From Cymbomonas tetramitiformis (Eukaryota > Chlorophyta > Pyramimonadophyceae > Pyramimonadales > Pyramimonadaceae), in NCBI GenBank assembly GCA_001247695.2, contig LGRX02024735.1, forward strand, positions 1 to 39,024: a DNA stretch of 39,024 nt, in the 5' to 3' direction. A program made the translations under genes and the position numbers. The notes below the pieces were generated by a model, which did no database searches, was not told the origin of the DNA, and worked only from the letters and a program-made list of their open reading frames with translations. Each line of letters starts with the position of its first letter. The stretch's first letter is position 1. Shown piece after piece: positions 14,692 through 39,024 of this stretch.

Positions 14692-14795
14692 AAGTTACAG
14701 GCGTTCAACAATTTATTTTCCAGGGTAAACGGATTACTATGGGAGGCTTATTAATATATCACATGAATTTTGTGTTTTTGGAATACGAAGTGTTT

Positions 14796-16533
14796 CTAAG
14801 AAAAATCGAATCTAAAAATCCAGACTGCCCACGGGAGTGGGCCTGCTTCTGACCATCTTCCATTTCTAAGTTGTTGGAAACAGACCTCTCCTACTTCAGC
14901 GATTCTGAACTTTTGTTTGCACAGCTTATTGTACGTAGTCCACCAGAACCCATCTGGAGAGAAACCATCCCACTGTGGAGCAACCACAGAGGCTGACGCT
15001 TTCTGTTCTCTAAGATACATCAGGAACGGTCCCATTAATGCAAAAGGCGGATTAGCATAACAGTTCAGTCCAGCTAGTGGATAGGCAAAGACATTGGTGC
15101 CACAAGCTTCTTTCTCTGGCAGCCTTGAGCAAAATCGCATTTTGGGACATCCCCGAACATTAGCCGTTGTTGCGAAGCAGTCGATGTTGTGCCGTCCAAA
15201 CATCATGTTCAACAGAGGAGAGAACCGTGGCATTAATGAATAATGAGACTCTTCATCCGGGACTACAATAGTTCCATCAGGTCCCCTTGAAAAGGAAACC
15301 ACCTTCAGCTCCAAGTTGTTATCCGCGACAAATCTATAGAGCTTTTCTGCCAAGTCCTTGCATGCTTTCGCGCCCAGGTTAGACGAGAGGATTCTCGATG
15401 AATCCCAGATATTTTTGTCCAAGATTATGTCCCAGCGCTGCGGGACCCGTTCTACTGGGATTTTGAACAAGGCTTCAGAAATCAACATTGACTGATCCAC
15501 CGACGAGCAGGTTCTCAAATCTCGATAGCACGAAATTTCATCTTGGAATTCCCCTGCTCTGATTGATGCCGTGACTTTTGTACCATCGACGTTTGTATCC
15601 ACGAGTATCGAGCAGTGGGCCTGCTTCCTGAATGCGGACACCTTAATCAGCGACGGCTGGAAGAGTTGACCCAAGTAGAGTTTGAAATGCCTCATCTGCT
15701 TACTGTTCAGGAAAAAACTTTTTCTGCAGAATTCGTGCCTCTTTGCCAGGAAGGCATACAGCCTCCTGCATGCAATAAGGATGCCCGGGGCTGCGATTGA
15801 CATTGAAACCAACTTTCCTGCCACTCTTTCCAGGTCCCTGGCCGAAATACTTGACGAAGCTCGCAGGTCCGTTGCCAGGCTCAAGAACTTATCCCATTTT
15901 TTCTGCGGGATGAAGAATTCCTGCTTCGCAAGGTCAATACCAATGCCTAGCCAGGTGATGGTCAAGGACGGAATGAACTCCGTCTTCTCCAGATGAATAA
16001 AATATCCTGCCGCCGTCATGCATGACGAGACAACGAACGCCGAGATTTTGGCTCTTTCATGTTTCGTAAGAGTTGAAGCTCCCACTGGGGCCGGCCCCCC
16101 GGCATTATCATCAATGTAGTATAAATATGGTATCCCCAGCCGCCGGATGAATCCCGCGAATTCTCCCGCGAAGGCGCTATAAATGACCGGCGCTAGCTTC
16201 CATCCAAAATTGAGAACTGTATAGACGTAATAAACGCCATCCCACAGGAAACCCATGTACTGTTGCGACTCCTCTGTAAGCATCACATGGAAGAATCCGT
16301 TCGCTTGGTCCATAATAAATGCCGGATCCCCCACCTCTAGGATTTGTGGAAGCATTGTCACCGACTCGTAGGTAAACGGAATATCCTTACACCAAAGGTT
16401 AAGGAATCTTGCATCGTTGATCTTTCTTGGTTTGGCTGGCTCCACTCCTACCGGCATAACAAGATGCGGGGGAGAGCATTCCCCTTCTTTGCCCCAGACT
16501 CTTATCGCTCCCCACCTGAGCTCGTCCTGTATC
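14796..16533 (-). CDS. reverse transcriptase, degenerate RNase H and methylase-like tail
   Basis: Counting from the ATG at 16457, 553 residues are encoded; conserved RT sequence (ELRWGAIRVWG) continues upstream in frame to about 16533. RT motif A is MDQANGFFHV (Asp50), motif B is LNFGWKLAP and motif C is YYIDD (Asp116, Asp117). A weak RNase H-like segment follows (ILVDTN near residue 300 and ILDKNIWDSS). The C-terminal ~150 residues carry DCFATTAN and an intact NPPF motif (about 469-472), as in the adenine-methylase-like domain of DIRS and PAT elements. The frame overlaps the upstream RNase H frame by 59 nt or more, and protein homology crosses between frames near 16533. A single extra base or a +1 frameshift probably separates parts of one polyprotein. 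Confidence 0.9.
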
Positions 16534-17448
16534 TTCCCAGGAGATCCAGGGGATCAAATGATCTGGGATCGCATGATTCTTGAACTGCATCCTCGGGGGT
16601 GTTCTTGAGTCGAAACGAGCCCCTTCGTAAGTGCCTGAAAAGTGTTGGAAGAAATCCAAGATGGAGACTCCATTCTTTGCCCATTCTTTGACCAGCAATC
16701 CCATCTCTGATGATGTTACCACCGTGTCCCAGAACTGGGTACACTCATGGATAGTTCCCACCCGGAACTCCCCCGGATCCCTAGCTGGTGCGGAAAGGGG
16801 GTCCGGGACCAAATTACCACTGAGGGCATCAATTACTGAAGGGGCCAAGGTGTCCCGCCCTTGGGCTTCACATGGCCCTAAGGACTGTTGCCTGTCCATC
16901 ACTTCCCGGGCACTGTCGAATCCTTTTACTGCCATGGTAATAAATGCAAGCGGGTCTCTCACACTTGTCGTAGCCGGCATGCCAGAATCCAGTGCGAAGT
17001 TGGCCAGGCTGTCAGCCAGTTTATTGTGGTCCCGTGCCACATGCTTGAAATTGAAAACACAATCCGGGCGCAAGGCCATGTGAGCTTTCCCAACGATAAG
17101 TAGTCTCTCCAAGTCTTTTGCGATAACGTTACGGGAGCCCGAGAATGCTGACACCACCAGCTCCGAGTCCCCAACAATTGTTGCTGTGGTCAAGTTCCAT
17201 TCTATTGCTCTTTGGATTGCAATCACGGCCCCCACGAATTCTGCATAATTATTCGTCTTGGATCCAAGGCGCCCGTAGTCCCGGGTCCACTGTTGACCTT
17301 GTTCTGAGCAGAGTGCCACCCCGAACGAGGCTTGCCTCAAATCCGGCGATGCGTTAAAGCGGCATGCACCATCGAAGAAAAGCAATCCCTTCCGTGGGGC
17401 TGAGTTTGGCTCGTGTCCCTGTTCGAGACAACAACCACACCAGAGCAC
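16399..17448 (-). CDS. archaeal-type RNase H joined to the start of the RT region
   Basis: Residues 22-155 form an RNase HI of the archaeal/plant (RVT_3) type. Catalytic positions are Asp26 (FFDGAC), Glu70 (YAEF), Asp94 (GDSELVV) and Asp146 (DHNKLADSLAN). All are present, so the enzyme could be active against RNA in RNA-DNA hybrids. Residues ~220-310 (FWDTVVTSSEMGLLVKEW, then FDSRTPPRM) look like the N-terminal extension of the reverse transcriptase, so RNase H and RT probably form one product across a frame change near 16533. The frame begins with GTG and stays open upstream to about 17490 without ATG, which suggests expression as a fusion with gag or by splicing. The element already has its own degenerate RNase H after the RT. 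Confidence 0.85.
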   Translation of the reverse strand: MLWCGCCLEQGHEPNSAPRKGLLFFDGACRFNASPDLRQASFGVALCSEQGQQWTRDYGRLGSKTNNYAEFVGAVIAIQRAIEWNLTTATIVGDSELVVSAFSGSRNVIAKDLERLLIVGKAHMALRPDCVFNFKHVARDHNKLADSLANFALDSGMPATTSVRDPLAFITMAVKGFDSAREVMDRQQSLGPCEAQGRDTLAPSVIDALSGNLVPDPLSAPARDPGEFRVGTIHECTQFWDTVVTSSEMGLLVKEWAKNGVSILDFFQHFSGTYEGARFDSRTPPRMQFKNHAIPDHLIPWISWEDTGRAQVGSDKSLGQRRGMLSPASCYAGRSGASQTKKDQRCKIP

Positions 17449-21873: not shown

Positions 21874-23237
21874 ATGGCATCGATTTCCTTCAACCTGACC
21901 ATTCGTCCCGAGATCAACCTTGAGATGCATTCCAATAAGACAGCCCTGTATACAATATACGTGAATATTGTGCTATTTGCGCTTTGCTATCAGTTGCAAA
22001 GTCCTCTTGAACCATATCTAGTTTCCAAGCTTTCCGATGGCGACGACAATCGGGCGTATTCTTCTGTGCAAGCCTGGTTTTCTTTTATCCAAACCATTGG
22101 AAGTCTTCTCATGGGGTCTCTTCTGGATAAATTCGGGCTTCAGGGCGGTTTTGTACTGACTTTCTTGTCATCCGCTGTGCACTATGGCATCCTGGCCAAC
22201 GCAACAACCCTTCAGTTGCTCTACATCAGTAAGGTACGACAGTGCCGCTCATGACTTCTTCTGGTGAAGGATTTGAATAGGTTACCTTATCACAGCGCGT
22301 TTAGTCCATCGAACTGAAGTATCATTCGCTCCTTCCGCAGATCCCAACACTCTTCATGCACGGCTTCCTGTGCGCACAGACGGCTGTCTCACAGCTGACG
22401 ACTGATGGTTCCTCGAGAATGGCGGCTTTGGGCCGCTTGACGGCATGTTACACTGCAGGAGCGACAGTCGGCCCGGCGTTAGGAGGCTACTTGGGTGCTT
22501 CAGGAGACTACTATTTTGGTGCAAAGTTAGCGGTGTGTGGGTCGTTACTCTCGGCCGTGCTGTCATACGCTTTTGTGCCAGCTCATCTCGTCACGAGTGC
22601 TTCGGAAACTGAGCCACCGAAAGCCGATGTGAAGACGAGCTTGAAAACAGTCTTCCTCAGTGCCTACGATCTCTTTCTAGTCAAGGGTGTGACTGGAGTT
22701 GCAAACAGCATGCAAAGCACAGCATTTCCGTTGATAGCCAAGAACTACTTCAGTTTCCAGGAGGAACAAATGGGCCTTGCCCAGTCGGCCATGACGTTAG
22801 CAACGACCGTGTGCAGTATTTTCCTCCCCGGGCCTCTAACGTCCGCTCTTGGCTCTTCCATCGCCGTTGTTCGATTATGCTTGTGGGGCTCTATTCTGGG
22901 CCTTGCCCTCCAAACACTTTTGCTAGCTTACGCAGTGGAAAACCTCATCACTCTCTTTTTCATTTCAAAGCTCTTCGTGTCCGTTTTTCAATTCTTGCTG
23001 TCCACAAGCCTCACCGGGGAAAGTGTTGGCCGCGTGCCCGCGGAGTGCAAAGGAACTTTGATGGGCACCGAGCACGCACTGTTTTCCGTCGTTCGTGTTT
23101 TCACTCCCGCGCTGGCAGTGGCGGTGCTGGAAGCCAACGGTGTGATCGGGGTATCAGCATACGCCGCAGTGATGTACACCTCGGGTACAGGACTATTTGC
23201 GATGACAACCCGCTTCATAAAGCAGAAGGAGGCGTAG
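21874..23237 (+). CDS. major facilitator transporter, SLC22A18-like
   Basis: Two exons, 21874-22233 and 22341-23237, flank a 107-nt intron (GTACGA...TCCGCAG, phase 0) and give 418 residues, close to the usual length of this family. About ten to twelve hydrophobic segments alternate with short loops. Exon 1 carries the first helices and a typical MFS loop (GSLLDKFG). Exon 2 opens with a helix and AALGRLTACYTAGATVGPAL, which resembles the central segment of SLC22A18 (IMPT1/TETRAN) proteins. The family is thought to export small organic cations; the substrate here is unknown. The in-frame GTG at 21832 is rejected in favour of ATG. Its upstream region is almost immediately the end of the retrotransposon (67 bp), so the native promoter has been displaced or replaced. 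Confidence 0.75.
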
Positions 23238-26398: not shown

Positions 26399-26403
26399 TG
26401 TTA
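26399..26403. repeat. target site duplication TGTTA, right copy
   Basis: TGTTA directly follows the 3' LTR. Removing the element and one copy restores a perfect 31-bp satellite register. Confidence 0.9.
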
Positions 26404-26462
26404 GTTTGCGCGTAGGCAAATGATTTTAATGCTAGTCTGGGCGTAGGCAAATTATTTCAATA

Positions 26463-26509
26463 GCAGTATGCGCGTAGGCAAATGATTTTACTGCCTACGC
26501 GCATACTGC
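26463..26509. other. 18-bp perfect inverted repeat with 11-nt loop
   Basis: The arm GCAGTATGCGCGTAGGCA (26463-26480) pairs perfectly with 26492-26509 around an 11-nt AT-rich loop. It lies at the switch point of the satellite's orientation. Confidence 0.9.
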
Positions 26510-26613
26510 CATTAAAATCATTTGCCTACGCTCATACTGCCATTAAAATCATTTGCCTACGCGCATACTGCCATCAAAATAATTTGGAACCCGGTATTTT
26601 TTGTCGCATGCAT

Positions 26614-26641
26614 GAAAAGAAAAAAGAAAAAAAGAAAAAAT
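26614..26641 (-). other. pyrimidine-rich 3' tail of the LINE
   Basis: On the coding strand this is a run of T blocks broken by single C (TTTTTTCTTTTTTTC and so on), about 73 nt after the ORF2 stop. A poly-A tail, usual for many LINEs, is absent. Confidence 0.55.
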
Positions 26642-26714
26642 GTGACTCTTCCTACTGGAAGCGTGATATTTGAAGGTGCACAGCTGTTACGCCTGCCCCT
26701 AGTCACATGCACAA

Positions 26715-29700
26715 TCAAGGCGGCTTCTTACTGTTTTTTAGAGCCTTCTCCTTCTCCGACCTGCTGTGTGAAATCAACATCTTGGCAGCCCATTCCACCG
26801 CGATGCTACTGATTTTCTTGAGGAGGGCTTCCGCTTCCTTCTTGTTGAAGCCGAGGTGTTGCGTGAGAGCCCTTGCGTTGTGTTCATATACCGACCCCGT
26901 GGTTCCGAAAACCATCGGGTGAAAGAACACTTTATAGCCTTTGGATCTGAGTAGCTCCATAAGGGGCTCATACTTGTTGAGTTTATCGTGAAGGGACACA
27001 TACCAGCGAGTGTCCCACGTGAAGGCCACCTCTATGAGGTGGATTTCTCCCACATCCTCCCTGTGGGTGTTTTCCGGCCTGCCTGGGGGGGCGTCCCTGA
27101 CGTCCTCTGCACCCTTGATCATGACAATATCTACAAAGTGTGGTATGTCGTCCGGGGGGTCCTTCGCCCCCGGGTGGTCCCTTCCGTCCCTACGGCACTG
27201 ACCCCTTCTGAGTACGAAGTCCGGTATCGGGCGGGTACATTTGTTAGTCCCGTCTAGCCCAGCGTGGTGCGCGATCCAGATCGGACTGGCGCCCGTTCGT
27301 CCCTTCCTGATCGCTTCGTAAAGGGTCCTTGCCACTTCGTTGTGCCTGGCTGTGGCCATGTTCATGCTGGTCTCGTCTTTGCATCCAGCCAGCCTGTGTG
27401 CCGGAGTGTCCCTCCTCCCGCAGAGGGCGCAGTCCGGGACCGGGTATTTGTTCGGCCATATGAGGTGCTTTCTGGCAGTCGTCATGAGGACCCCAAACCG
27501 GCACCTTAGAATCAGGGACCTGAGCGTCGGTGGAGTAACCTTCCAGAAGTGATTGGATATTCCTGGTATCGACTTGTCCTGGAGAATTTCCCGCGGGGGC
27601 TCCTCCAATCTTCTTCCCATGTGTGTCTCGACTGCGGCAGCGTCTGCGTGGCTTGTGGCGGCCCTGTCTCCGTTTCTCCGGTGCATGGCCTCCCGGTCCC
27701 TGTTTCTCTTTCTTTTTCTCTCTGGGGCCGCCTCCTGGTAGGCGTCTATCGCTTGTTGTGGAACGTCCGTCAGGTTCTGGAGTTCCGACTCTCCCAGGTC
27801 CATCTCCATCATCGAGCGGCACAGACCTTCAATTGGGTCCTCACGTTCTGCCTCCTCGATTGCTTGCATCATCTCTCTGTCCGGCGAGTTCATGGCCCCC
27901 CTCTCGCCCATGTCCAGAGGCGGCCCCCGCGTCTCATCGAATTCCCAGAGTAGGTCCCACTCGTCCTGAGTGGTCACTTGATCCCGCGGGTGTTCCTGTT
28001 CCTGGTCGCCCGGCTCCCGTCGCCCCGGCGGGTCGTCCTGGCTCCAGGGAGCGTGCTGGAGTTCCTCCAGGAGCATCGGCTCCTGGAGATTCTCCCCTGG
28101 TGTCCCCATTTCCACGTTCTGTCGGCCCCGGTCGGGGCCTTGGGCTGGCCCTGGGGCGCCGGTCGTGGGGTTCTTTGTCATAGAGCCCTCTGCTGAGATA
28201 GCTCCCTCCCGATTTCCCCTGCCGGGTGTTCCCCATTCTTCCCACGGGCTGCTCGGGGGCTGTAGCCATTTTCTCACTGACTTGTGCTGTGTCGCTTTTA
28301 GTGCAATTCTTTCTGCCACATACCTTTCCACCGCCCCCTCCCCTTGCAGGGGCCTCATCGATTCACCATCCCGGGCATTGGCCACGAGCGTGTACATGGT
28401 CCTGTTGTCCCATGGGTCAATTTGGGTGGTGCCCTCCTGGTTTTCTGCTGCCTGTTTGGCCGCCTCATCTGCCTTGTCGTTGCCCTTCACCCCCGTGTGG
28501 CTTTTGACCTTCCTGAGTGAGACCTTCGTTCCCTGGCTGTTATGCTGTTCGACCAGGGAGAGTATATCCTCAAGCAAATCCCTGTGTCTATGGCACTCCA
28601 TCGTGTGGGGTCTGGACAACATGTTGAGTATTTGGTACATACTGCAGAGGCTGTCCGTGCAGATCGCTATCTCGCCCGGTGTTGTGCGTTCTCTGGCCCT
28701 GAGTGCCGCGTGGATCGCCAGGAGTTCCGCCCTGTTGATGGTGAGGTGTCCACCCGTCGACCACGTGCCCCTCCAGGTTCTGGGGTTTTCATCCCCTCTG
28801 GGGTCCCAGTAGGCCGCCCCCACTCTATGTAACCCCCCTTCTTCCTCTGGGTCCAGTCGCGATCCATCCGTATAGAGGAACGAGGTTGCATCCCAGGCTT
28901 TGTTGATTTTCTCTAGGGTTCTGGAACGTCCGGTTTTGTGCTTAATGGGACACGTGGGGAACCTTTCCCTTACTTCCGTGTGTCCCCTGTCCCTGTCTTG
29001 TCTGCTGAAGAGCATGGGAGTGCGCTCCATTGCATTTAGCCATCTGGCCCTCGAGTCCTCTTTGATCTTGTCCAAAGGCCATGCCGTGTTCGCCGCATGG
29101 TACTCCGTGATCGTGACCTCGGCGAGTCCCCTGTCGCGCCATGTTTGTCTCATGGCCCTCGCCGCCTCCGGGGTGCGGTCTTCCTTGGGGACCTCACCCC
29201 CTTCGTTCCCCCATCCCTGTCTGCGCGACATGCTCGGTATTTCCCATTTTCTCATCGGGTGAGGGTCGAAGATCATGTCGTGTTGACTAGTGCTCTCCAT
29301 CGCGTTTTTGACCGCCGCCATGTCTGACACTGCGTCCGAGGTGTGGACCCTCGGGTTGGCCGGCCTGAGGTTCCGAATCGTGTGGTACTTACGGACCGTG
29401 CAGTACGTGCTGCGCTGCAGGGCCTTCCCGACTAGTTCCGCTGCCCCTTCTGGGTCCGGGCAGAATTTTTGCCATCCCTCTGCGTTGGCAACAACTAGGA
29501 TCCTAACTCCCCAGTTGCTGTAGTCCTTCTTCGTGACGCCTGATACTGTGGTGCCTCCCCAGTGGTCTGGGGGAAGGAACGTAAAGCTTTTTCTTGGGAT
29601 CACCCCAAATTCATGTATCCTAGTATCTCCATACCTCCTGCAGTATGCCTTGGCTGGCGTTCTCGTCCAGGCCGGATAAATTCCTACCCCCAGTACCGGG

Positions 29701-32700
29701 GTTTTCGCCATGGTGGACATCAGGGCCTCCTTAAGCGCTTTGTCCAGGTCTGCCGCTGTGTACTCCGGATTGAACTCGAAGGCGCCTAGCTCTCCCCATT
29801 GGGTGTCCCATGCAGACCCTTTGGATCCGAAAATCTTGTCCCTGTCGAACTTGGAGCAGTATGTCGCCGTGTGGCTGTGTACGTTGAGCGGCGACGCGAA
29901 TATCTCCGCTTGGATCCCGAAGGCCTCCTGGAGCGCTTGCATAATTTCTGGAGGGAGCGTCCAGTGATTTTGCAGTGCAGTTTTCTTGACTTCCTCCTCC
30001 TCCTCGCAGGAATATCTTTTGAGCAGGAGGACTACTTCTGTGGCGAATCCGTGGACTGTGCCCAGCTGTGGCTCCCGCTCCTCGAAGGACCGCCGTCGCT
30101 CTTCCCCCGCCTTTGTATGGGTCTGATCTGCGCTGTCCGTGCCCGCCGCGGCCACATATCTGTCGTAGAGCCTATCGAGTACCTCTTCTTTGAGGGCGCC
30201 TACCATCTTGCCTCGCTCGTCGTGCGCGAACACGTGGTGCCTGCCTGTCTCCGTCGTGAGCGTGCATTTGCCCGAGGGTGCTGCGTCCCAGTCTGGGTTA
30301 AAGGGTTCGGTGTCTATGTTGAGCTCGGTGACCCCCGGCCAGTAGCGGGCATGCCTCGTGGGAGCTCCTGACAGCGGTTCTCTTTCTGTGGGTCTCCGAG
30401 CCTGCTGTGCTTCCCGCTCCTTGTTGTGGAACGTGTCGGTCTCTCGTTCGGCCCGGCTCGGGTTCATTCCCGCAATTCCTCCTGTCAGCAGTGTGTCCTC
30501 TTCGACCCATGCTTCCCCCTGTGGGCGAACTGGCCCAAGCAGGTATTCCCTGCTTCCCCAGTGCGTCCTAACCGCTAGGATTGTGGTGCTCTCGGACGCC
30601 TCAACGGCCTGGGGTTCCTCCTCCGTTTCTTCGAGCACTTCCGGATTATTGGCAACCGTCGGGCCAGCGCCTACCGAGAGCTCCATGGTGTCGATCCTCC
30701 ACCACATGTTCCTGCTCCGGCAGTCATTAACAGGGGGGTGCGTTGCCCATGCGACCTGTTCACTGCTTACGAGGTGCGTGGTCATCAGCCTAACCGCGTC
30801 CCTCGGGAATCCGATTTTGTCCGCATGCTGGAACAACTCCCCAGTCCTGACATCTCCTTTGGACAATTGAGCGAGGACCCATGTCCTCAGCATCATGATC
30901 TGCGCCGCGGTCCCCTTCCATTTCGTGCCTCTGCCGTCTTCCAGGCTAACCTTTGTGACCCGGTGGGGGCTTGTTTCCCTCTGGGGCGTCTGCGCAGGCG
31001 GATTCGGCCTGGGTCTGATCTCCTCGCTCTCCACCGTGGCCTGGGGGCTTTGTATGATCTGCCTGGTCCTTTTCTCCCCGACCTTCGGGAGCTCCCGGGC
31101 GTGCCTGGGGGTTGCTGGCACCGTGTTTGCCTGGGTCTGCCTGGTCGGGCTCCTCCCGACTTGCATTGGCCCCGCGCCAGCCTCTTCCTGGATTTCGTCA
31201 TTCACTTCCTCGAAGGAGATTGGGTCATGAGTCTCTCCCTCCCCGTGGAACACGTGGTGGCGCTCCCGTTGTTCCAATTCTCCTATGCGCGCCATGATTG
31301 GGCCTCTCATGGCTTTCCTGTATCCCTTGGAGGTCGTAGCTTCTCCGCCCACCGGGGGCCCATGCAGCCCGATCCAGGACTCCCACTTCTCTCCTGTGGT
31401 GGACCTATTCCATTCCTGCCACTTGTCAATCATGTAGCACACCCAGACGCCGCATTGGTATCCGTCCCGTTGGTGTGCGACCCCCATGTTGGAGACCGTT
31501 ACGTTGACCGGCGGCCATCCCGGCGGTCCTGCCCACTGTCTCAGCGCCGTCAGTAGGCGCGTGTCTTCCCCCCCCATTGGGTCGTAGAGGTAGATTGAAA
31601 CACTGGTGTCCTCATTTTTTCCGAATAGGAGCACATTCCAGTGGCTGCCGTCGCAAGTCAGGACAAAGGAAAATCCCTCGTCCCGGACCGTTTCCATCGT
31701 GTTGCGCATCTGCGCCTCGTATTGTTCCGACTGCTCGAACTCGGTTCCGTTGAGGGCATCCGCGAGTTTCGTTTGGTGCATCGACACTGTGTCCAAGCCT
31801 GTCGTGCAGAGGCTGTGGGTTTCCACTTGTATGGAGCTAAGCCACGCCTCCCTGCCTCTGGTGTCCGAGAAGACCCCTTCCGTCCTGTGCCTGGGGGTGC
31901 CCTCCCCCCGGGGCTCGTTTCCTCTTCTTCCTCCCCCCTTCAGGAGGCTGTCCGCATGGGACCCCTCAGAGCGGTTTCTCCTCATCGCCCTCCTGCTGTC
32001 CATCGCCTCCTTCTCGGTGATTCTTGCTCCAGCTCTGGCTGCGTGTCGCAGGTCTGAGAGGAATTTTTCCGCCTCGGTTTGCCTGGGTCTCACGCCTACG
32101 GAGTCCATTATCATGACTCTACCCCCCGGGTCCTCACGCAGGGTGGGTCTGACTCCAATATCGTGGCATTTAAAGGCGTCTTCGTGGTCTTCTTCGTCCT
32201 TGGCGCAATAACCTGTCGTCATTTGTTTTAAGGCGTTTTTGGCTTGCATGGAGGTCGTGGGGGGTCCTCTTCTTCCTGCGTGCCACAGCGATCGCGGGCC
32301 CCATTTGGATTGAGTGGGGTGGAAGCCCTCTTCCCAAGTGGTTGGTTCTTCCCCTTCGGTCGCCTGGGGTTCTGCCAACCTTTGGAACCCTAGAGCGTTG
32401 TGTGCCTCTTTGGACGGCATAAACTGGGGTTTGAGGGTGAGGTTCTTCGGGTTGTCCCAGAATCGCGCGTCGTTGGGCTTGTCAGCGAGCGCTTCGCATA
32501 TATATGGGTACAGCATGAGCATGAAGGTTCGCATGCGCCCTTGAAACCTGGCGGGGACTTTTGCTTTTGCTTCTCTGAGGCTGCACGCACGGGTGCCCCC
32601 CTTCGCCACATAAAACCCCTCCTCCACGAAAGGGAGCAGAGGCAGCAGCGTGGTCAGACTAAGCGGAATTTCCTCCTGGTCATTGACTGAGTAGATCTTC

Positions 32701-35700
32701 ACGCTCTCCTCACCCGTGTCCTGGTCAACGACCGTTCTGTGTCTGCCTTCGAGCGCACTCGGGAAGGGCTTCCGAACCGCGTTCGCAAGTTTGGAGATAA
32801 CCCCGTGCTGGGTGTTAATCAGGTCCGCCAGCAGCGGTCCGGATCCTGTGAGCGAGACTTGGTGCTCACGTAGCACCGCAAGTTGCCGGGCTGTGCAGCA
32901 CCTGTCGAGTTCCCCAGTTCTGACCGTACCGTCCACCTGTCCCTGTCTGCGGTTGTAATGATACCTGACCAGCCCCCTCGTGGTGGCACTAAGTTGAGAG
33001 GTCTGCTTGACATGAAAGGCCTCACTTTCCCTGAACACCTCTCTCGGTCTTTCTCGAAGGTCTTCTCTGGTGGCGGTGGCCATCTGCAGGGCGCTCGCCA
33101 CACTTTGTGCGTACGTGGCCAGCAGTGGTGTGTGCCCAAGCCCGTAGGAGGTTTTCGGGAGTGCCGTGTAGCAATTAGTGGTGCCTCTTGGCAGTCCATT
33201 AAGGAGCTTGTATGCCCCGCCGATAATCGCGTCTAGGTCCTCGATTTCTTTGGTAGAAAAAATCCCTAGGGGAAGGGCATATCTAAGCTGTCCTATAACT
33301 GCCGAGCGGAGGACCTCCTCTTGCTGTCCGCTCGTCAGAGGGGAGTGGAGGAGCGCCTGTATCCTTTCCCTTGCCTGCAGAAAGGAGGCTTGCTTTTGGA
33401 CCGTCCAGTCCCCCGAGAGGGCTACTTGTATCCCAAGGTACTTGTATGGGTCATCCGGGTGGAGGTACGGGAATCCATGCTTGCCTACCCTGGGGGTGCG
33501 CATGGTAACATCCTCGTATGTCTCCTCAGGGATCGGAGACCCTTTTTCGTCCGTTCCCGTAATTCCGCATTTGGTCTTGTTGATTCGAAGTCCACTCCAA
33601 TTGGAGTAGAGTTCCAGCTTCCTGACTTGCACTGCCAGTTGCGTTGCCGACTCCGCGATCAGGGCGAGATCGTCCACATATGCCGCCGAGGAAGTGCGAA
33701 TTGGTTTGTCCGAATCCGTGAGGCGGTGCATATACCCCTTGTTGCCCGCCTTGAGCCAGCGTAGTAGGGGTTCCAAATAGAGAATAAAGAGCAGGGGGCT
33801 TAGCGAGTCTCCCTGCACTAGTCCCCTTTTGACCATGAGGGGCTCCGAGCTGTAGTGCTCTATCTTTGAGGCCATCCTAAAGGGTGACCTGTGTGCCTCC
33901 CCCCCGTAGAGGTCTGCCACCACTCTGACCGCGTCTTCCGGGATCCCCAGGTACTTCATGGTGTGCTGGAGTCTGTCATGCTCCACCGATCCGTAGGCGT
34001 TCTCGAAGTCCACGTAGAGAACATGCAGTTGGCTGTGGGACAGTTTGCTGTCCTCGATAACATGCTGCAGTCGAAGGAGCTGGTTGATCGTGCTTCTGTG
34101 TTTCCTAGAACCCATCTGCTCCTGGCTGTGGATACTGTTTACCTCGCAGAACGTGGATAGAACATCCGTGACCATTGCCGTATAAAGCTTGAGAATTGTG
34201 CGGAGAAGCCCTATGGGCCTGTAGTTGGAGAACACAGAGGTGTCCCCTTTCTTATGTAGGTAGACAAAGGTGCCCAACTTCCAAGTGCCTGGGGTTATCC
34301 CCGCTTTCCACATCGCCCTCATGAGCGAGAAAAGAAATTCGTGGAATTCCTCCGGCATAGCCTTGAGGATTTCATTTGGTACCGCATCCGGGCCGGCTGC
34401 CTTCCCGTTGGGGAGCCGTTTGACAATTTGTCTGTAGAGTTCAATAGTGAGCCTGCTCCCCAGCTCCGTCTTCCTCGGTCTTTGCCCCGGTTTCATGCTA
34501 TCCGGGGCGTCCGCCGCCAACCATGGCATCTCTTCGTCCAGTTGGTCCGTCCTGGGGTGTTCGAAGCAATATGGGTCCGAGTGGGCCATGTGCCCCGAAA
34601 AGGCCTCCGCGGTGGCCACCGCCCCGACTGCCATTTTGTTGTTTCTGTCCCATATCCCCAAGGTTCTTCCTTTCGGGAGTGCTTCGCGGTCTCTGAAGAC
34701 GAACCTGTGGGCTGACTTTTTCATGCGATAGTAGTTACTACGGAATTTCTGGACGAATGTCTCCCAGGTTTCGGCTTTATGGTCTTTGATAACGGACTTG
34801 GCCTCCTGCCTGAACCTGCTCATCTCAGACTCCGCCCACCAGTGGGGGTCTTCCGGCTCCGCACACGTGTCAGGTCTGCCCTTCGCCGTGTCCCGTGGCT
34901 CCTCCATGGCTTCCTCTAGCAGTGCCGCGCTGGGGGCTTCTCCTGTTGCCCTCTCTATCGCAAGCATCTCCTGTAGGACCGCCGCTGCCTTCAGCGCTTT
35001 ATCACGCTTCCTGAATTTAGATTTTGGTAGTCTGACCCCTGTGTTGGGGTCCCTGGTGACTTTGGGCTTGCACCTGACGGTTTCAAGGGGGATCTCCACT
35101 GCCCGCATGGCTTGCTGAAGAACCCCATCAACTGCCTTCCCGGCCTCATCAATTCTTTCCCTGGCGTCCGGGCTTCCCCTTTCCGCCGCGTCGACCGCGT
35201 TTTCGATCACTGTCTTGAATTCATTTTCCCTGAGACTCGGCTGGAGCGCCGAATCTATTGCCGCCTTCATTGAGCGTTGCAAGGCTTTGGAGATCGGGAA
35301 TTGATATTTCGTGATCGGGTCAGGTTTCGCCTGCTCTTCCACTATCGGTGTGGTCGTGTGAAGCTTCCACAGCGGCACCGCCGCCACTGCCGCTTGGTGG
35401 TCGCTGCAGTGCCTGTGTGCCCTGGTGTCGATCGGGTGCCGTTCGTCAGCGATCCGCTGAAGCTCTTCTGACGCTAACCACCCATCGATTTTGTGGTCCC
35501 CAAACGTGGGTCCTTGCGGGCAGCTGATCTCTGCAAGGCCCGCCCGGTCAGACATCCCTCTCCATGCACGGTGTTCTATCCCGTCTTGCTCTCTGGGGAT
35601 CTCCGCGACGTTGAAATCTCCCCCCACCACCATGTGCTCCCCCTTCCTGGAAGCCACTGCGGCCTCTCGGGCTATGTAATCACGGATACACGTCCTGACC

Positions 35701-37172
35701 ACCGCTTCTTCCGGGTGGGGAGGGTTGTAGACACCGAGCACGTGCACCTTCACGCCGCTTGGCAGCGTAATAACTACGTGCTGTAGATACCCTTTCGCGC
35801 ATCTGGGGACTTCACGGTTAGCGCGCACGTCCGTCCTGTCGTAGGGGCGGCTGAGGGCTAGGACCACCCCCCCTCTGTACGAAGTACCATCCGCCCCCCT
35901 CCTCTGGGTTCCATGGCACGGCGCTGAGTGCCAGGCGCTGTAACCCAGCCCTTGGAGTTTTTTTGGTCCCATGGGGCCAGCCGCCTTTGTTTCTGTGAGA
36001 ACCAGCACGTCCGGCTGGTGTTCCTCGCAACTCCTGGCGAGGTCATAGTACGCGTGGTCGCTTCCTCTGATATTCCAGGTCATCAGGGACAGTCTACCTT
36101 CCTCCCCCACATCTGGTGGGGGTGTTTGATTCTCTTTGTCGCTGTGGTGATTTGGTTCATTTTTAGATTCTCGTGCACTATTGCCCCAGCAGCCAAGTAC
36201 GGTCTTTGCGCCTGCCCTATGCTGTCTCTTCTGCTGAGCTGGCGCCTGTCCGCTTCCCGTCACTTGTTGTAGTGGCCTGAGCACTGCCCTTTTGCCTGGT
36301 ACTCTACTACTCCCGCTCCGGGTGCCGGCCTGGCATTCCGTTTGTTCCTCCTGCTTGGTGGCGATTTGCATGACGATTCTGTGTTGTTTTGCCACCCTAT
36401 TGTTTGTCGTTTTCCCAGTGCCCCCAGCGGCTCTGTGCGCCGCCCTTGGCCAGGTTGACCTCTCTGGGGATTTCGTCCAGTCGCACCATGCTGCCGCCAT
36501 CACCGCGACCCAGACCCCACACTGAAAGTCATCGTACTGAGTACGGAGTTTGATGCACGTGATTTCGGTAGGGACCCCCTGCTTTGTCCTTCTCTCTGCC
36601 CACTTTCGGGTGGCGTCCAGCAGCTCCTCATGCCCCCTCGCTCCTTCCCGTGGGTTGGGTCCGTAGGAGTCAAAGAGGTGCACGTGGGTGCCCCCCCCTT
36701 CCCCGGCCTGTTGGTCAAAGAAGAGGGCCCTCCAGTGCTCTCCGTCACACAGCGGCTGGTACGCGAACCTCCCGTTCGCGAGTAGGCCATCGATCCCATC
36801 TCTGGCCATAAGTTTGGAGAGGAATTTGTGCTGGTTCATCTCCTCCGGCGGAGCCGGGTCAATTGTGTGAAGGTACCGGCTGAGTTGCACATCCGATACA
36901 CGTCCCTCCACCGTGTAGAGGCCCCCCTCCTCTTGGGGGTTCGCGCCCCGTGTCTGGTTCCTTGGGGGGGGGGCGCTTTTCACCCCCCCCACCGCTAAGG
37001 GGGGGGGTGGAGGGTTGATCTTCCCCTCCTCTGCGAGACTTCCTGTTCTTGTCCCTATCTTCGAGCTCTTTCCTGACTTTCCGCAGCATGCCGACCGGAA
37101 CAAAAACACAGTTGCTGTTCCTCCCCGCAAAATTCCTGCGGAGGGAGGTCCTCCCTGCAGCGCTATTGACAT
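26715..37172 (-). CDS. LINE ORF2 polyprotein with two proteases, two nucleases and a PCIF1-like domain
   Basis: ATG at 37172, 3,485 residues. Domains in order: Ulp1-like C48 protease 85-230 (His146, Asp168, Gln212, Cys218); APE endonuclease 360-604 (TWNIRG, LTETKA, GGDFN, SDHQ); reverse transcriptase ~905-1210 (YVDFENAYGS, GLVQGDSLSPLL, AYVDD); second C48 protease 1770-1920 (His1844, Asp1864, Gln1901, Cys1907); a weak chromo-like segment ~2197-2232; a PCIF1-like methyltransferase domain ~2408-2590 (FASPLN, FEFNPEY); RNase H 2765-2912 (Asp2769, Glu2816, Asp2840, His2892, Asp2899); CCHC finger 3248-3264; restriction-like endonuclease 3276-3410 (RHN, PD, EVAF, K-x2-KY). The polyprotein would nick DNA, reverse transcribe RNA in place and process itself. 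It overlaps ORF1 by 314 nt in another frame. Confidence 0.93.
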   Translation of the reverse strand: MSIALQGGPPSAGILRGGTATVFLFRSACCGKSGKSSKIGTRTGSLAEEGKINPPPPPLAVGGVKSAPPPRNQTRGANPQEEGGLYTVEGRVSDVQLSRYLHTIDPAPPEEMNQHKFLSKLMARDGIDGLLANGRFAYQPLCDGEHWRALFFDQQAGEGGGTHVHLFDSYGPNPREGARGHEELLDATRKWAERRTKQGVPTEITCIKLRTQYDDFQCGVWVAVMAAAWCDWTKSPERSTWPRAAHRAAGGTGKTTNNRVAKQHRIVMQIATKQEEQTECQAGTRSGSSRVPGKRAVLRPLQQVTGSGQAPAQQKRQHRAGAKTVLGCWGNSARESKNEPNHHSDKENQTPPPDVGEEGRLSLMTWNIRGSDHAYYDLARSCEEHQPDVLVLTETKAAGPMGPKKLQGLGYSAWHSAPCHGTQRRGADGTSYRGGVVLALSRPYDRTDVRANREVPRCAKGYLQHVVITLPSGVKVHVLGVYNPPHPEEAVVRTCIRDYIAREAAVASRKGEHMVVGGDFNVAEIPREQDGIEHRAWRGMSDRAGLAEISCPQGPTFGDHKIDGWLASEELQRIADERHPIDTRAHRHCSDHQAAVAAVPLWKLHTTTPIVEEQAKPDPITKYQFPISKALQRSMKAAIDSALQPSLRENEFKTVIENAVDAAERGSPDARERIDEAGKAVDGVLQQAMRAVEIPLETVRCKPKVTRDPNTGVRLPKSKFRKRDKALKAAAVLQEMLAIERATGEAPSAALLEEAMEEPRDTAKGRPDTCAEPEDPHWWAESEMSRFRQEAKSVIKDHKAETWETFVQKFRSNYYRMKKSAHRFVFRDREALPKGRTLGIWDRNNKMAVGAVATAEAFSGHMAHSDPYCFEHPRTDQLDEEMPWLAADAPDSMKPGQRPRKTELGSRLTIELYRQIVKRLPNGKAAGPDAVPNEILKAMPEEFHEFLFSLMRAMWKAGITPGTWKLGTFVYLHKKGDTSVFSNYRPIGLLRTILKLYTAMVTDVLSTFCEVNSIHSQEQMGSRKHRSTINQLLRLQHVIEDSKLSHSQLHVLYVDFENAYGSVEHDRLQHTMKYLGIPEDAVRVVADLYGGEAHRSPFRMASKIEHYSSEPLMVKRGLVQGDSLSPLLFILYLEPLLRWLKAGNKGYMHRLTDSDKPIRTSSAAYVDDLALIAESATQLAVQVRKLELYSNWSGLRINKTKCGITGTDEKGSPIPEETYEDVTMRTPRVGKHGFPYLHPDDPYKYLGIQVALSGDWTVQKQASFLQARERIQALLHSPLTSGQQEEVLRSAVIGQLRYALPLGIFSTKEIEDLDAIIGGAYKLLNGLPRGTTNCYTALPKTSYGLGHTPLLATYAQSVASALQMATATREDLRERPREVFRESEAFHVKQTSQLSATTRGLVRYHYNRRQGQVDGTVRTGELDRCCTARQLAVLREHQVSLTGSGPLLADLINTQHGVISKLANAVRKPFPSALEGRHRTVVDQDTGEESVKIYSVNDQEEIPLSLTTLLPLLPFVEEGFYVAKGGTRACSLREAKAKVPARFQGRMRTFMLMLYPYICEALADKPNDARFWDNPKNLTLKPQFMPSKEAHNALGFQRLAEPQATEGEEPTTWEEGFHPTQSKWGPRSLWHAGRRGPPTTSMQAKNALKQMTTGYCAKDEEDHEDAFKCHDIGVRPTLREDPGGRVMIMDSVGVRPRQTEAEKFLSDLRHAARAGARITEKEAMDSRRAMRRNRSEGSHADSLLKGGGRRGNEPRGEGTPRHRTEGVFSDTRGREAWLSSIQVETHSLCTTGLDTVSMHQTKLADALNGTEFEQSEQYEAQMRNTMETVRDEGFSFVLTCDGSHWNVLLFGKNEDTSVSIYLYDPMGGEDTRLLTALRQWAGPPGWPPVNVTVSNMGVAHQRDGYQCGVWVCYMIDKWQEWNRSTTGEKWESWIGLHGPPVGGEATTSKGYRKAMRGPIMARIGELEQRERHHVFHGEGETHDPISFEEVNDEIQEEAGAGPMQVGRSPTRQTQANTVPATPRHARELPKVGEKRTRQIIQSPQATVESEEIRPRPNPPAQTPQRETSPHRVTKVSLEDGRGTKWKGTAAQIMMLRTWVLAQLSKGDVRTGELFQHADKIGFPRDAVRLMTTHLVSSEQVAWATHPPVNDCRSRNMWWRIDTMELSVGAGPTVANNPEVLEETEEEPQAVEASESTTILAVRTHWGSREYLLGPVRPQGEAWVEEDTLLTGGIAGMNPSRAERETDTFHNKEREAQQARRPTEREPLSGAPTRHARYWPGVTELNIDTEPFNPDWDAAPSGKCTLTTETGRHHVFAHDERGKMVGALKEEVLDRLYDRYVAAAGTDSADQTHTKAGEERRRSFEEREPQLGTVHGFATEVVLLLKRYSCEEEEEVKKTALQNHWTLPPEIMQALQEAFGIQAEIFASPLNVHSHTATYCSKFDRDKIFGSKGSAWDTQWGELGAFEFNPEYTAADLDKALKEALMSTMAKTPVLGVGIYPAWTRTPAKAYCRRYGDTRIHEFGVIPRKSFTFLPPDHWGGTTVSGVTKKDYSNWGVRILVVANAEGWQKFCPDPEGAAELVGKALQRSTYCTVRKYHTIRNLRPANPRVHTSDAVSDMAAVKNAMESTSQHDMIFDPHPMRKWEIPSMSRRQGWGNEGGEVPKEDRTPEAARAMRQTWRDRGLAEVTITEYHAANTAWPLDKIKEDSRARWLNAMERTPMLFSRQDRDRGHTEVRERFPTCPIKHKTGRSRTLEKINKAWDATSFLYTDGSRLDPEEEGGLHRVGAAYWDPRGDENPRTWRGTWSTGGHLTINRAELLAIHAALRARERTTPGEIAICTDSLCSMYQILNMLSRPHTMECHRHRDLLEDILSLVEQHNSQGTKVSLRKVKSHTGVKGNDKADEAAKQAAENQEGTTQIDPWDNRTMYTLVANARDGESMRPLQGEGAVERYVAERIALKATQHKSVRKWLQPPSSPWEEWGTPGRGNREGAISAEGSMTKNPTTGAPGPAQGPDRGRQNVEMGTPGENLQEPMLLEELQHAPWSQDDPPGRREPGDQEQEHPRDQVTTQDEWDLLWEFDETRGPPLDMGERGAMNSPDREMMQAIEEAEREDPIEGLCRSMMEMDLGESELQNLTDVPQQAIDAYQEAAPERKRKRNRDREAMHRRNGDRAATSHADAAAVETHMGRRLEEPPREILQDKSIPGISNHFWKVTPPTLRSLILRCRFGVLMTTARKHLIWPNKYPVPDCALCGRRDTPAHRLAGCKDETSMNMATARHNEVARTLYEAIRKGRTGASPIWIAHHAGLDGTNKCTRPIPDFVLRRGQCRRDGRDHPGAKDPPDDIPHFVDIVMIKGAEDVRDAPPGRPENTHREDVGEIHLIEVAFTWDTRWYVSLHDKLNKYEPLMELLRSKGYKVFFHPMVFGTTGSVYEHNARALTQHLGFNKKEAEALLKKISSIAVEWAAKMLISHSRSEKEKALKNSKKPP

Positions 37173-39024
37173 AGAAGAGGCTTCCCCCGTCCATCGCCTC
37201 TCTCCAATACCATTTCCCCCTCTTGTGCATCCAGGGTGTGTTCTTCCTTTGATTCCTCCAAACCCAGACTTCTGGGCCTTGATGTGAGTACACAGTCCCC
37301 CCCGGGGCAGAGTCGTTTATTTGCGTTCGTGTTATTAAGATTCTGATCCCGCGGTGGGTAATAGCCAAGATTCCCATCATTACGAGGCATGCGGAAATAA
37401 GTAATGTGTGCTGCCGGTCCATCACGAGTTTAAAGTGTCCCGGGAGCACGAGACTCGGTGACAAGAAGTGCAGCATTATGCCAAATTTTTCGAACTCTCC
37501 CTCCCTTGGGTGGTCCCCCTCTGTTATCAGATCGGGGGTGTGATTACAATAGGCAGTTAATACAAATAAGCAATAGGTTTCATTGTTCTGCAGGTATTTA
37601 TCATATTTCCTATTGCCACTGCCTCTCCCTGGCCAGCGCGTGCCGGGAGGCGTCATCTTGTGCCCCCTCCAGGCTGTGCCTCCACCAGGTGTGCTCGCCT
37701 GCCTGCATTCTGCATCTCCGTCTACCCTCGTCCGGTGCCTGGTCTCGGCCCATCGTCTCGCATCAGATTCTGTGTGCCTGCGGAGGGGTTGCATCATATC
37801 GGTCAGATCACCATCCTGGCAAGATGGCCAAGCATTCAGAACTGGCAAGGGAGCACTGACCTGAGCCCTGAGCTCGTCGAGGCGCTTTAGTGCCGCCCTG
37901 CCGTCAGGGTTGTAAAACTCCTGTGGAATTGCGGGGCCTGTCTCAGGCCTCCCATACTGCCGAGGGTCCTTGCCCAGGGCCTCCACCAGGGGCCTCGGCT
38001 GGGCAGTGGGCTGGGCAGTCGGCTGTTGCTGGAGCTGTGTGCCCCACTGTGGGTACAGCCCCTGCGCCGGGTGCGAATATTGGGCCTGTGGCGGCCCCAA
38101 TGGCACCTGGTGTGGCAGCTGCAGCGGGGCGGCCGGAGGGGGCTGCAGCTGCTGGGGCTGTTGCTGTTGGCCCAGGTAGCTCTGCCCCCCTTGAGGCATC
38201 AGCTGGACCCCGTGCTGCAGCAGCCCCGTGACCTGCCCAGACAGCTGGGTGATCGCTGACATCTGCCTGTCCGAGGCTTGCACCTGCTGGCTTACCACCT
38301 CGGTGAGAGCCTTCACGGAGTCGGCCAGCGACGCAAGTTCGCCGCCCGCCCGAGGAGCCTGCGCTGCTGGCGGCTCCGGTGGTGGCTGCCTGCCGTACCC
38401 CTGGTCCTGCGCAAACAGCTGGGTCGGCTGTACCTGTCCGTAGTATGAGCCTTTGGCTCCTTTGCCCTGCCCCTTCCCCGCGTATCTGGGCCTCTGTCTC
38501 GGGGGCTGCTGTGGGCTTCGTTGAGTCATCCACCTGGACCTCGGGCTGCAGGCGATGTGAAACTTTACGTTCCCGATGTGGAAGAACATACGGTTCGTGG
38601 TGCGATGCGAGACTGCCTCGTATGTGGCAGCCTCCACTGTTACCCAGTACCTGCAGGCCTCCCTGCTGTCCCTGTCCGGGAGCGGTTGGGCGAGAGTGAT
38701 GAGTTCCCCCACCCCCCTTTCTGATGGGGGGGAGGGAACCGGAAACACCTCGATGCCTGTCTGCGACCGCAGCTCCCGCTTCGCTGCAGAGAGGACCTGT
38801 TCCACCCTGTCTGCAGAGTGCCAGTGTCTGCCCTCCGGTGGCCTGGCAACCACCTCCAGTTCCCACTCCTGGAACTTTGTGATATCTGCAGTGGAGGAGT
38901 ATTTGTGCACTGTGACTGGGTGCCCATAGAACTCATATGGGAGACCCAGCCGCAGTGCCCTGTCAGCCTCGTCCGCTCGCGAGAACACCACAATGGCGAC
39001 GTCCAGTGCTGTCGCCCTGGCCTC
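36859..39024 (-). CDS. LINE ORF1, RRM-like and Gln/Pro-rich, 5' partial
   Basis: The frame is open at the window edge, so the true start is outside. It begins with the last part of an RRM-like fold (DVAIVVFSRADEADRAL, then YGHPVTVHKY). Next come a Gly/Lys/Arg-rich segment (GKGQGKGAKG), a short coiled coil (SLADSVKALTEVVSQQ) and a long Gln/Pro-rich region. The C-terminal part differs: it has a hydrophobic segment (HTLLISACLVMMGILAI, about 37356-37406) preceded by N-glycosylation-type sites. It ends in a Gly/Pro/Arg-rich tail overlapping ORF2. The RNA-binding fold and low-complexity regions suit a LINE ORF1 that packages RNA. The role of the hydrophobic part is unknown. Confidence 0.75.
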   Translation of the reverse strand, partial: EARATALDVAIVVFSRADEADRALRLGLPYEFYGHPVTVHKYSSTADITKFQEWELEVVARPPEGRHWHSADRVEQVLSAAKRELRSQTGIEVFPVPSPPSERGVGELITLAQPLPDRDSREACRYWVTVEAATYEAVSHRTTNRMFFHIGNVKFHIACSPRSRWMTQRSPQQPPRQRPRYAGKGQGKGAKGSYYGQVQPTQLFAQDQGYGRQPPPEPPAAQAPRAGGELASLADSVKALTEVVSQQVQASDRQMSAITQLSGQVTGLLQHGVQLMPQGGQSYLGQQQQPQQLQPPPAAPLQLPHQVPLGPPQAQYSHPAQGLYPQWGTQLQQQPTAQPTAQPRPLVEALGKDPRQYGRPETGPAIPQEFYNPDGRAALKRLDELRAQVSAPLPVLNAWPSCQDGDLTDMMQPLRRHTESDARRWAETRHRTRVDGDAECRQASTPGGGTAWRGHKMTPPGTRWPGRGSGNRKYDKYLQNNETYCLFVLTAYCNHTPDLITEGDHPREGEFEKFGIMLHFLSPSLVLPGHFKLVMDRQHTLLISACLVMMGILAITHRGIRILITRTQINDSAPGGTVYSHQGPEVWVWRNQRKNTPWMHKRGKWYWREAMDGGSLFYVNSAAGRTSLRRNFAGRNSNCVFVPVGMLRKVRKELEDRDKNRKSRRGGEDQPSTPPLSGGGGEKRPPPKEPDTGREPPRGGGPLHGGGTCIGCATQPVPSHN
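36964..37007 (-). other. homopolymer runs in the ORF1/ORF2 overlap
   Basis: On the plus strand, ten G (36964-36973), eight C (36983-36990) and nine G (36999-37007) lie within 44 bp. Both reading frames pass through them. They are potential sites of polymerase or ribosome slippage linking ORF1 to ORF2. Confidence 0.6.

What the first reader, a model, noticed from the sequence alone, without database searches (positions are those of the whole stretch)
28900..30000. PCIF1-like cap-adenosine methyltransferase domain inside a LINE polyprotein
ORF2 residues ~2408-2590 contain FASPLN, a YCSKF segment, GAFEFNPEY and a run with VLGVGIYPAW. These follow the order seen in PCIF1 (phosphorylated CTD-interacting factor 1), the enzyme that methylates the cap-adjacent adenosine of mRNA. 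A retroelement carrying this module could mark its own RNA cap or DNA. The catalytic NPPF is NPEY here, so activity may be changed or lost while the fold is kept. I do not recall this domain in published Dualen descriptions.
Basis: partly seen in the sequence, partly recalled or inferred. Interest (0 to 1): 0.88.

Follow-up and report, generated by a model that had tools for sequence, protein, structure and literature searches.

The report
Methyltransferase-like domain in algal jumping gene
A jumping gene nearly identical to one from the green alga Cymbomonas carries, inside its own copying protein, a relative of the enzyme domain that marks human mRNA caps; its active-site signature is altered (NPEY instead of NPPF), yet 40 of the 102 copies of the domain examined read the same, so it likely still acts on adenine, probably in the element's own RNA or new DNA rather than on caps.

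The parts
26715..37172 (-). ORF2-like LINE polyprotein, 3485 aa, open throughout (P0001)
   Evidence: 98% identical over residues 71-2708 to Cymbomonas tetramitiformis P0003
29325..30317 (-). PCIF1-family methyltransferase domain, residues 2286-2616
29760..29771 (-). catalytic tetrad position, NPEY (residues 2468-2471), aligned with human PCIF1 N553-F556
29883..29900 (-). FASPLN motif (residues 2425-2430), identical in human PCIF1
29961..29969 (-). NHW (residues 2402-2404), aligned between human G491 and P494, in PCIF1's active-site loop; co-conserved with NPEY
   Evidence: loop limits from PMC10544176 passages
29667..29669 (-). W2502, aligned with human W588 (outside the three loops); co-conserved with NPEY
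29577..29585 (-). FTF (F2530, F2532), aligned with H616 and Y618 in PCIF1's substrate-binding loop (low-confidence stretch of the alignment); co-conserved with NPEY
   Evidence: loop limits from PMC10544176 passages
29511..29513 (-). W2554, aligned with H637 at the end of the substrate-binding loop (low-confidence stretch); co-conserved with NPEY
28440..28895 (-). RNase H domain, residues 2760-2911, downstream of the methyltransferase domain
   Evidence: Pfam PF00075 E=1.4e-16; position
33381..34295 (-). reverse transcriptase core, residues 960-1264
   Evidence: Pfam PF00078 E=6.3e-30; R2 retrotransposon protein 9nl2 E=2.1e-26
35394..36098 (-). APE-type endonuclease, residues 359-593
   Evidence: Pfam PF03372 E=4.7e-14
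26811..27437 (-). CCHC zinc knuckle and restriction-like endonuclease, residues 3246-3454
   Evidence: profile of 7 elements against R2 proteins in the PDB, 9nl3 E=1.4e-10; the single sequence alone did not match R2
36447..36782 (-). first Ulp1-like cysteine protease domain, residues 131-242
   Evidence: same profile as the second copy, E=3e-31
31371..31688 (-). second Ulp1-like cysteine protease domain, residues 1829-1934
   Evidence: Pfam PF18242 E=3.2e-5 (just under its cut-off), PF02902 E=0.084
36859..38991 (-). upstream overlapping ORF (710 aa), probable ORF1; its frame stays open to the window end
   Evidence: no confident Pfam match

Best explanation
The polyprotein of this Dualen-type LINE contains a PCIF1-family methyltransferase domain, predicted to have the Rossmann fold and placed just before its RNase H, which with its conserved NPEY active site is likely an adenine-N6-type methyltransferase that would mark the element's own RNA or newly made DNA at the insertion site. 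Shown: the homology, the fixed position, the strong conservation, the NPEY signature and its co-conserved pocket. Inferred: that it binds SAM and transfers a methyl group, and that the substrate is the element's own nucleic acid (most probably the RNA:DNA hybrid or new strand handled by RNase H) rather than an mRNA cap. In lineages where tetrad and pocket have eroded, the domain is likely a catalytically dead scaffold.
Against: No activity was tested. Position 3 of the tetrad is P in the N6-adenine motifs named in PMC8868631 (NPPF/Y, NI/LPY; passages) and E here. In human PCIF1, changing both prolines (NAAF) was used as the inactive mutant (PMC12896973 passages). 59 of 102 domains have lost the tetrad, yet 57 of the 62 elements that do not read exactly NPEY still carry APE, RT, RNase H and RLE, so activity is dispensable in many lineages. 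Two rows without NPEY (P0068 HPEH, P0034 HPPF) keep the pocket. Co-loss rests on only 5 independent pairs on supported branches: on average 3.9 the same way, 0.0 opposite, 1.1 no difference, which cannot reach p 0.05; for N2430 alone only 1.9 of 5. Eroded rows are more diverged in general (mean drop 0.31 over all conserved columns). Equal-cost parsimony slightly favours an ancestor without NPEY (11 against 12 changes) and traces mostly gains, against my reading of repeated loss. A survey of eukaryotic 6mA centres on MT-A70 enzymes and its held text has no PCIF1 (PMC12695648 passages). The substrate idea rests on neighbours, not on data.
Confidence: 0.4

Rival explanations
1. Pseudo-methyltransferase: the domain is kept as a SAM-, adenosine- or RNA-binding module or as a structural platform between RT and RNase H, without catalysis in any lineage.
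Against: The NPEY class keeps N, P and an aromatic residue plus the pocket as a set (40 of 41 rows), and most other rows lack the set (2 of 58 keep it). A pure scaffold would not need this; a binding-only module might.
Confidence: 0.38
2. Cap-specific m6Am methyltransferase: the element methylates the cap-adjacent adenosine of its own mRNA, as PCIF1 does.
Against: The aligned part is human residues 417-668 only. A review places cap binding in the helical domain (PMC10544176 passages), and no upstream block is shared between the early families tried. No WW domain was found. A PHD finger sits upstream in a relative. A tetrad change of F to H in Drosophila goes with absence of m6Am, although honey bees with Y at that place also lack it and there the change is thought an unlikely cause (PMC9479742 passages).
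Confidence: 0.1
3. Passenger or artefact: a chimeric gene model or chance capture without function.
For: One database protein (P0008) does run the LINE end into a Ty3/gypsy element, so chimeric models exist.
Against: The window ORF is open genomic DNA. The domain holds the same place in 99 of 99 elements and is as conserved as RT.
Confidence: 0.01

Closest known systems
[quoted passage not shown] PDB 6irv, 6irx)
   Same: Homologous Rossmann methyltransferase half (residues 417-668), FASPLN and FG motifs, N and P of the tetrad, W588.
   Different: Tetrad NPEY, not NPPF; no WW domain found; no helical cap-binding domain detected; embedded in a retroelement polyprotein.
Giant-virus PCIF1-like proteins (Pithovirus LCPAC101, Hokovirus, Tetraselmis virus 1, Cafeteria roenbergensis virus)
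   Same: Similar predicted fold; Foldseek E 1.6e-12 to 1.4e-6 in BFVD.
   Different: Listed in BFVD as PCIF1 WW domain proteins of viruses, 316-482 residues long, not parts of an RT polyprotein; their tetrads were not read here.
Dualen/RandI non-LTR retrotransposons
   Same: APE and RLE in one polyprotein with RT and RNase H; Dualen is described as encoding both endonucleases (PMC4640811 and PMC3636483 passages).
   Different: The passages seen mention no methyltransferase domain in Dualen; no reference Dualen sequence was at hand to check whether it is there unnoticed.
Retrotransposons with captured cytosine DNA methyltransferases (Symbiodinium, charophytes; PMC5890265, abstract and section list seen)
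   Same: A retroelement carrying a nucleic-acid methyltransferase, suggested to methylate its own retrotranscribed DNA.
   Different: A different enzyme family (C5-cytosine, DNMT); the abstract speaks of distinct retrotransposon classes and does not name Dualen.

Membership tests
PCIF1 (cap m6Am methyltransferase) | Sequence homology to PF12237 | tested here: met
   E=7.7e-20, 71.6 bits against a cut-off of 31.1; 20 of 20 members of alignment A1 match at E up to 1
PCIF1 (cap m6Am methyltransferase) | PCIF1-type Rossmann methyltransferase fold | tested here: met
PCIF1 (cap m6Am methyltransferase) | NPPF catalytic tetrad | tested here: not met
   NPEY in the window; 0 of 102 domains NPPF or NPPY
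PCIF1 (cap m6Am methyltransferase) | WW domain binding phosphorylated RNA polymerase II CTD | tested here: not met
   no WW family among the Pfam matches of P0001 or P0002 at E up to 1
PCIF1 (cap m6Am methyltransferase) | Helical domain that binds the m7G cap | tested here: inconclusive
   model aligns only to residues 417-668; residues 1986-2285 match only 2 proteins by profile and 1935-2285 no Pfam family with confidence; that stretch was not modelled
PCIF1 (cap m6Am methyltransferase) | N6-methylation of cap-adjacent Am | not testable with these tools
   needs an enzyme assay
Dualen/RandI LINE | APE endonuclease | tested here: met
   PF03372 E=4.7e-14
Dualen/RandI LINE | Restriction-like endonuclease in the same polyprotein | tested here: met
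   7-element profile hits R2 CCHC and RLE stretches, E=1.4e-10; single sequence negative
Dualen/RandI LINE | RNase H | tested here: met
   PF00075 E=1.4e-16
Dualen/RandI LINE | Cysteine protease (recalled as a Dualen feature) | tested here: inconclusive
   two Ulp1-like domains, PF18242 E=3.2e-5 just under its cut-off, PF02902 E=0.084
Dualen/RandI LINE | RT groups with reference Dualen elements | not testable with these tools
   no reference Dualen sequence held; seven Haematococcus rows group inside the PCIF1-bearing RT clade

The most novel reading that the evidence does not exclude
A self-methylating retrotransposon: Dualen-type LINEs captured a PCIF1-family enzyme, rebuilt its active site to NPEY, dropped the cap-reading parts and use it during insertion to put N6-methyladenine on their own RNA:DNA intermediate or new DNA copy, giving the copy a mark that in the green alga Chlamydomonas goes with expressed genes. 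This would be a new branch of adenine methyltransferases with a catalytic tetrad that I have not seen described.
Probability: 0.25. Interest if true: 0.9.

Novelty: new variant of a known kind. Interest (0 to 1): 0.72.

Why it matters
The passages seen describe PCIF1 as a cap enzyme found only in eukaryotes (PMC8868631 and PMC10544176). Here a branch of its family is a standing part of a widespread LINE clade, with an altered but strongly conserved active site. If active, these elements would be among the first retrotransposons known to me to carry their own adenine-N6 methyltransferase, a counterpart to the DNMT-carrying retrotransposons of PMC5890265, and a natural source of an NPEY enzyme. 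Even if inactive, the clade holds many changes between an intact and an eroded active site on one scaffold, a ready set for studying how enzymes and pseudoenzymes turn into each other. It also suggests a new module for the Dualen group, and one enzyme assay would decide between the readings.

Tried and rejected
Viral contigs: no locus encodes a relative, with the window domain or with a 5-sequence alignment. Bacterial and archaeal genomes: none. A third protein search with the 20-sequence profile returned 22 proteins of 144-630 residues, apparently fragments of the same kind of element but not examined further; none was named as a cellular PCIF1. So the origin of the domain (host or giant virus) was not resolved. 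The Dam family PF05869 listed for P0008 was considered as an alternative identity and rejected: it lies at 2418-2488, away from the PCIF1 match at 301-435, and it is not among the families that the 20 A1 members match. dN/dS was not computed because no DNA of other copies could be fetched. NCBIfam and Rfam gave nothing. The idea that NPEY is decay private to this copy was rejected. Four polyproteins without the domain (P0027, P0051, P0076, P0095) have no detected RNase H or RLE and end 106-526 residues after RT; P0108 keeps a partial N-terminal match in the right place; P0109-P0111, an RT outgroup, show no significant match.

Papers: 10 searches listed none that describes a PCIF1 domain in a retroelement. 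Only the listings (titles and starts of abstracts) were seen for most, and several lists were capped (20 of 153, 12 of 220, 10 of 5,257), with all four terms required, held 1 paper. Passages were seen of PMC8226300, PMC8868631, PMC12896973, PMC4640811, PMC3636483, PMC3747384, PMC10544176, PMC9479742, PMC12695648, PMC10675990 and PMC5741210; of PMC5890265 the abstract and section list. The library is open-licence only. The original Dualen paper (Kojima and Fujiwara 2005) is known to me only by recall, and a review that might mention retroelement-linked adenine methyltransferases (Iyer et al. 2016, recalled) is not held. Databases already label some of these proteins with PF12237.
Full report
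What is there. The minus-strand ORF at 26715-37172 encodes 3485 residues. Pfam finds an APE endonuclease (E=4.7e-14), a reverse transcriptase (6.3e-30), a Ulp1-like protease (3.2e-5, just under its cut-off), PCIF1_WW (7.7e-20, residues 2373-2506) and RNase H (1.4e-16). The C-terminus is a CCHC knuckle with a restriction-like endonuclease: a profile of seven elements hits R2 proteins in the PDB at 1.4e-10, while the single sequence does not. The RT is closest to R2 among solved structures (2.1e-26) and also matches LINE-1 ORF2. Two endonucleases in one polyprotein is the mark of Dualen (PMC4640811 and PMC3636483, passages). P0003 of Cymbomonas tetramitiformis is 98% identical over residues 71-2708; that the window comes from this prasinophyte (lineage) or a close relative is inferred.

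It is a standing part of the clade. A domain-level protein search returned 9 hits, 8 of them from Cymbomonas, each with an RT or endonuclease label beside PF12237. A search with the RT region returned 111 proteins, of which 60 carry the precomputed PF12237 label. With the two hits that one search did not return and the window protein, 114 were examined. A profile from 10 seeds found the domain in 91 of 114, and iteration found it in 102 of 114. The iterated profile's own E-values are inflated by training, but it had 0 hits at E<1 in 456 reversed or shuffled sequences. In 99 of 99 proteins with detected PCIF1, RT and RNase H the order is RT, PCIF1, RNase H, with 33-187 residues between PCIF1 and RNase H in 98 and 483 in one, P0101, which has a cytosine methylase match in that interval. 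Of the 12 without it, four have no detected RNase H and end 106-526 residues after RT, P0108 keeps an N-terminal remnant at the right place, P0109-P0111 form an RT outgroup with no significant match, and P0112-P0115 are distant, long-branched rows. Named hosts are Cymbomonas (Pyramimonadophyceae) and Haematococcus lacustris (Chlorophyceae), two chlorophyte classes; most other rows come from unnamed sources. PCIF1 and RT distances correlate over 98 rows (r=0.61, 0 of 1000 permutations; RNase H against RT 0.76), as expected for a part inherited with the element.

It is under strong constraint. Between the window element and two other Cymbomonas families, identity is 0.52 and 0.50 in the PCIF1 core, 0.47 and 0.44 in RT, 0.50 and 0.46 in RNase H, 0.32 and 0.28 in APE, 0.30 and 0.26 in the first protease, and 0.12 to 0.32 in linkers. 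The second protease and the RLE could not be compared in this way because they did not align. This is protein identity, not dN/dS.

How strong is that co-loss? The labels change at least 11 times on a careful RT tree of 106 rows. Only 5 independent pairs lie on supported branches; pocket (4 of 6) and tetrad go the same way in 3.9 of them on average, the other way in 0.0 and do not differ in 1.1, which cannot reach 0.05; W2404 alone gives 4.3 of 5, N2430 alone 1.9 of 5, and the scaffold residues N2563 and P2428 give 0.1 and 0.5. Equal-cost parsimony gives 11 changes if the root of the PCIF1-bearing clade lacked NPEY and 12 if it had it, and traces 11 gains, or 9 gains and 3 losses. That leans against repeated loss. 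I still read it as mostly loss because N, P, FASPLN and W588 are shared with human PCIF1 and the eroded tetrads are spelled in 45 ways without gaps, which is unlike one ancestral state; that is inference, and the deep branches of the tree are weakly supported.

How it may work. The three parts of the tetrad that in related enzymes face the adenine (N, P and an aromatic; recalled) are kept, with P to E at the third place. No motif in the review passages has E there (PMC8868631), and the human NAAF mutant is the inactive control (PMC12896973), so catalysis is open. No WW domain was found. The match begins at human residue 417, while cap binding is ascribed to the helical domain. Of eight elements tried, the 300 residues upstream matched 1 to 5 proteins for four early families, the window's included, and 52 to 59 for the other four; in relatives of the latter kind they hold a PHD finger (best 4.9e-8) with weak chromodomain traces. 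I therefore favour a nucleic-acid methyltransferase that acts at the insertion site on the element's own RNA:DNA hybrid or new DNA. In Chlamydomonas 6mA marks expressed genes and 5mC is confined to transposons (PMC12695648 passages), so such a mark could help a new copy stay active; that paper centres on MT-A70 enzymes and its held text does not contain PCIF1. This last step is speculation.

Confidence: domain identity 0.97; position and conservation 0.95; catalytically active in the NPEY class about 0.55; own-nucleic-acid substrate given activity about 0.75, hence 0.4 for the whole statement; DNA rather than RNA undecided. The most useful rival is a non-catalytic binding module.

Novelty. Ten searches of the paper library (several lists capped) listed no report of a PCIF1 domain in a retroelement; the two Cymbomonas genome papers do not contain the word PCIF1 in their held main text. 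Subscription papers were not searchable, and databases already show the Pfam label. Capture of a nucleic-acid methyltransferase by retrotransposons is known for DNMTs (PMC5890265), so I class this as a new variant of a known kind.

Noticed in passing
window 13504-17448 (minus): A DIRS-like retroelement: ORF with an ALOG domain (3.6e-26) and a weak tyrosine-recombinase match, next to ORFs with RVT_1 and RNase H-like domains.
   Followed up: no
window 22356-23237 (plus): Part of a Major Facilitator transporter gene (PF07690 9.2e-15), possibly a host gene.
   Followed up: no
window 36447-36782 and 31371-31688 (minus): Two Ulp1-like cysteine protease domains in one polyprotein; the second did not align with two other Cymbomonas families.
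   Followed up: partly
protein P0101, residues 2004-2077: A C5-cytosine DNA methylase match (3.5e-8) between the PCIF1 domain and RNase H, plus a weak PHD finger upstream: possibly an element with two kinds of methyltransferase.
   Followed up: partly
protein P0008, residues 1920-3117: A Ty3/gypsy-type element of Cymbomonas with a Dam-family adenine methyltransferase match (PF05869, 5e-11) between RNase H and integrase.
   Followed up: no
proteins P0011, P0036, P0038, P0043, P0046, P0053, P0066, P0079 and others: A Josephin (PF02099) match in several Haematococcus and metagenome elements; in P0011 it lies upstream of the APE endonuclease, where the window element has a Ulp1-like protease.
   Followed up: no
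protein P0109: A SET-domain label (PF00856) on an outgroup LINE polyprotein without PCIF1.
   Followed up: no
window 26400-26660 (minus): A T-rich tract followed by short direct and inverted repeats just after the stop codon of the polyprotein; perhaps the element's 3' end.
   Followed up: no
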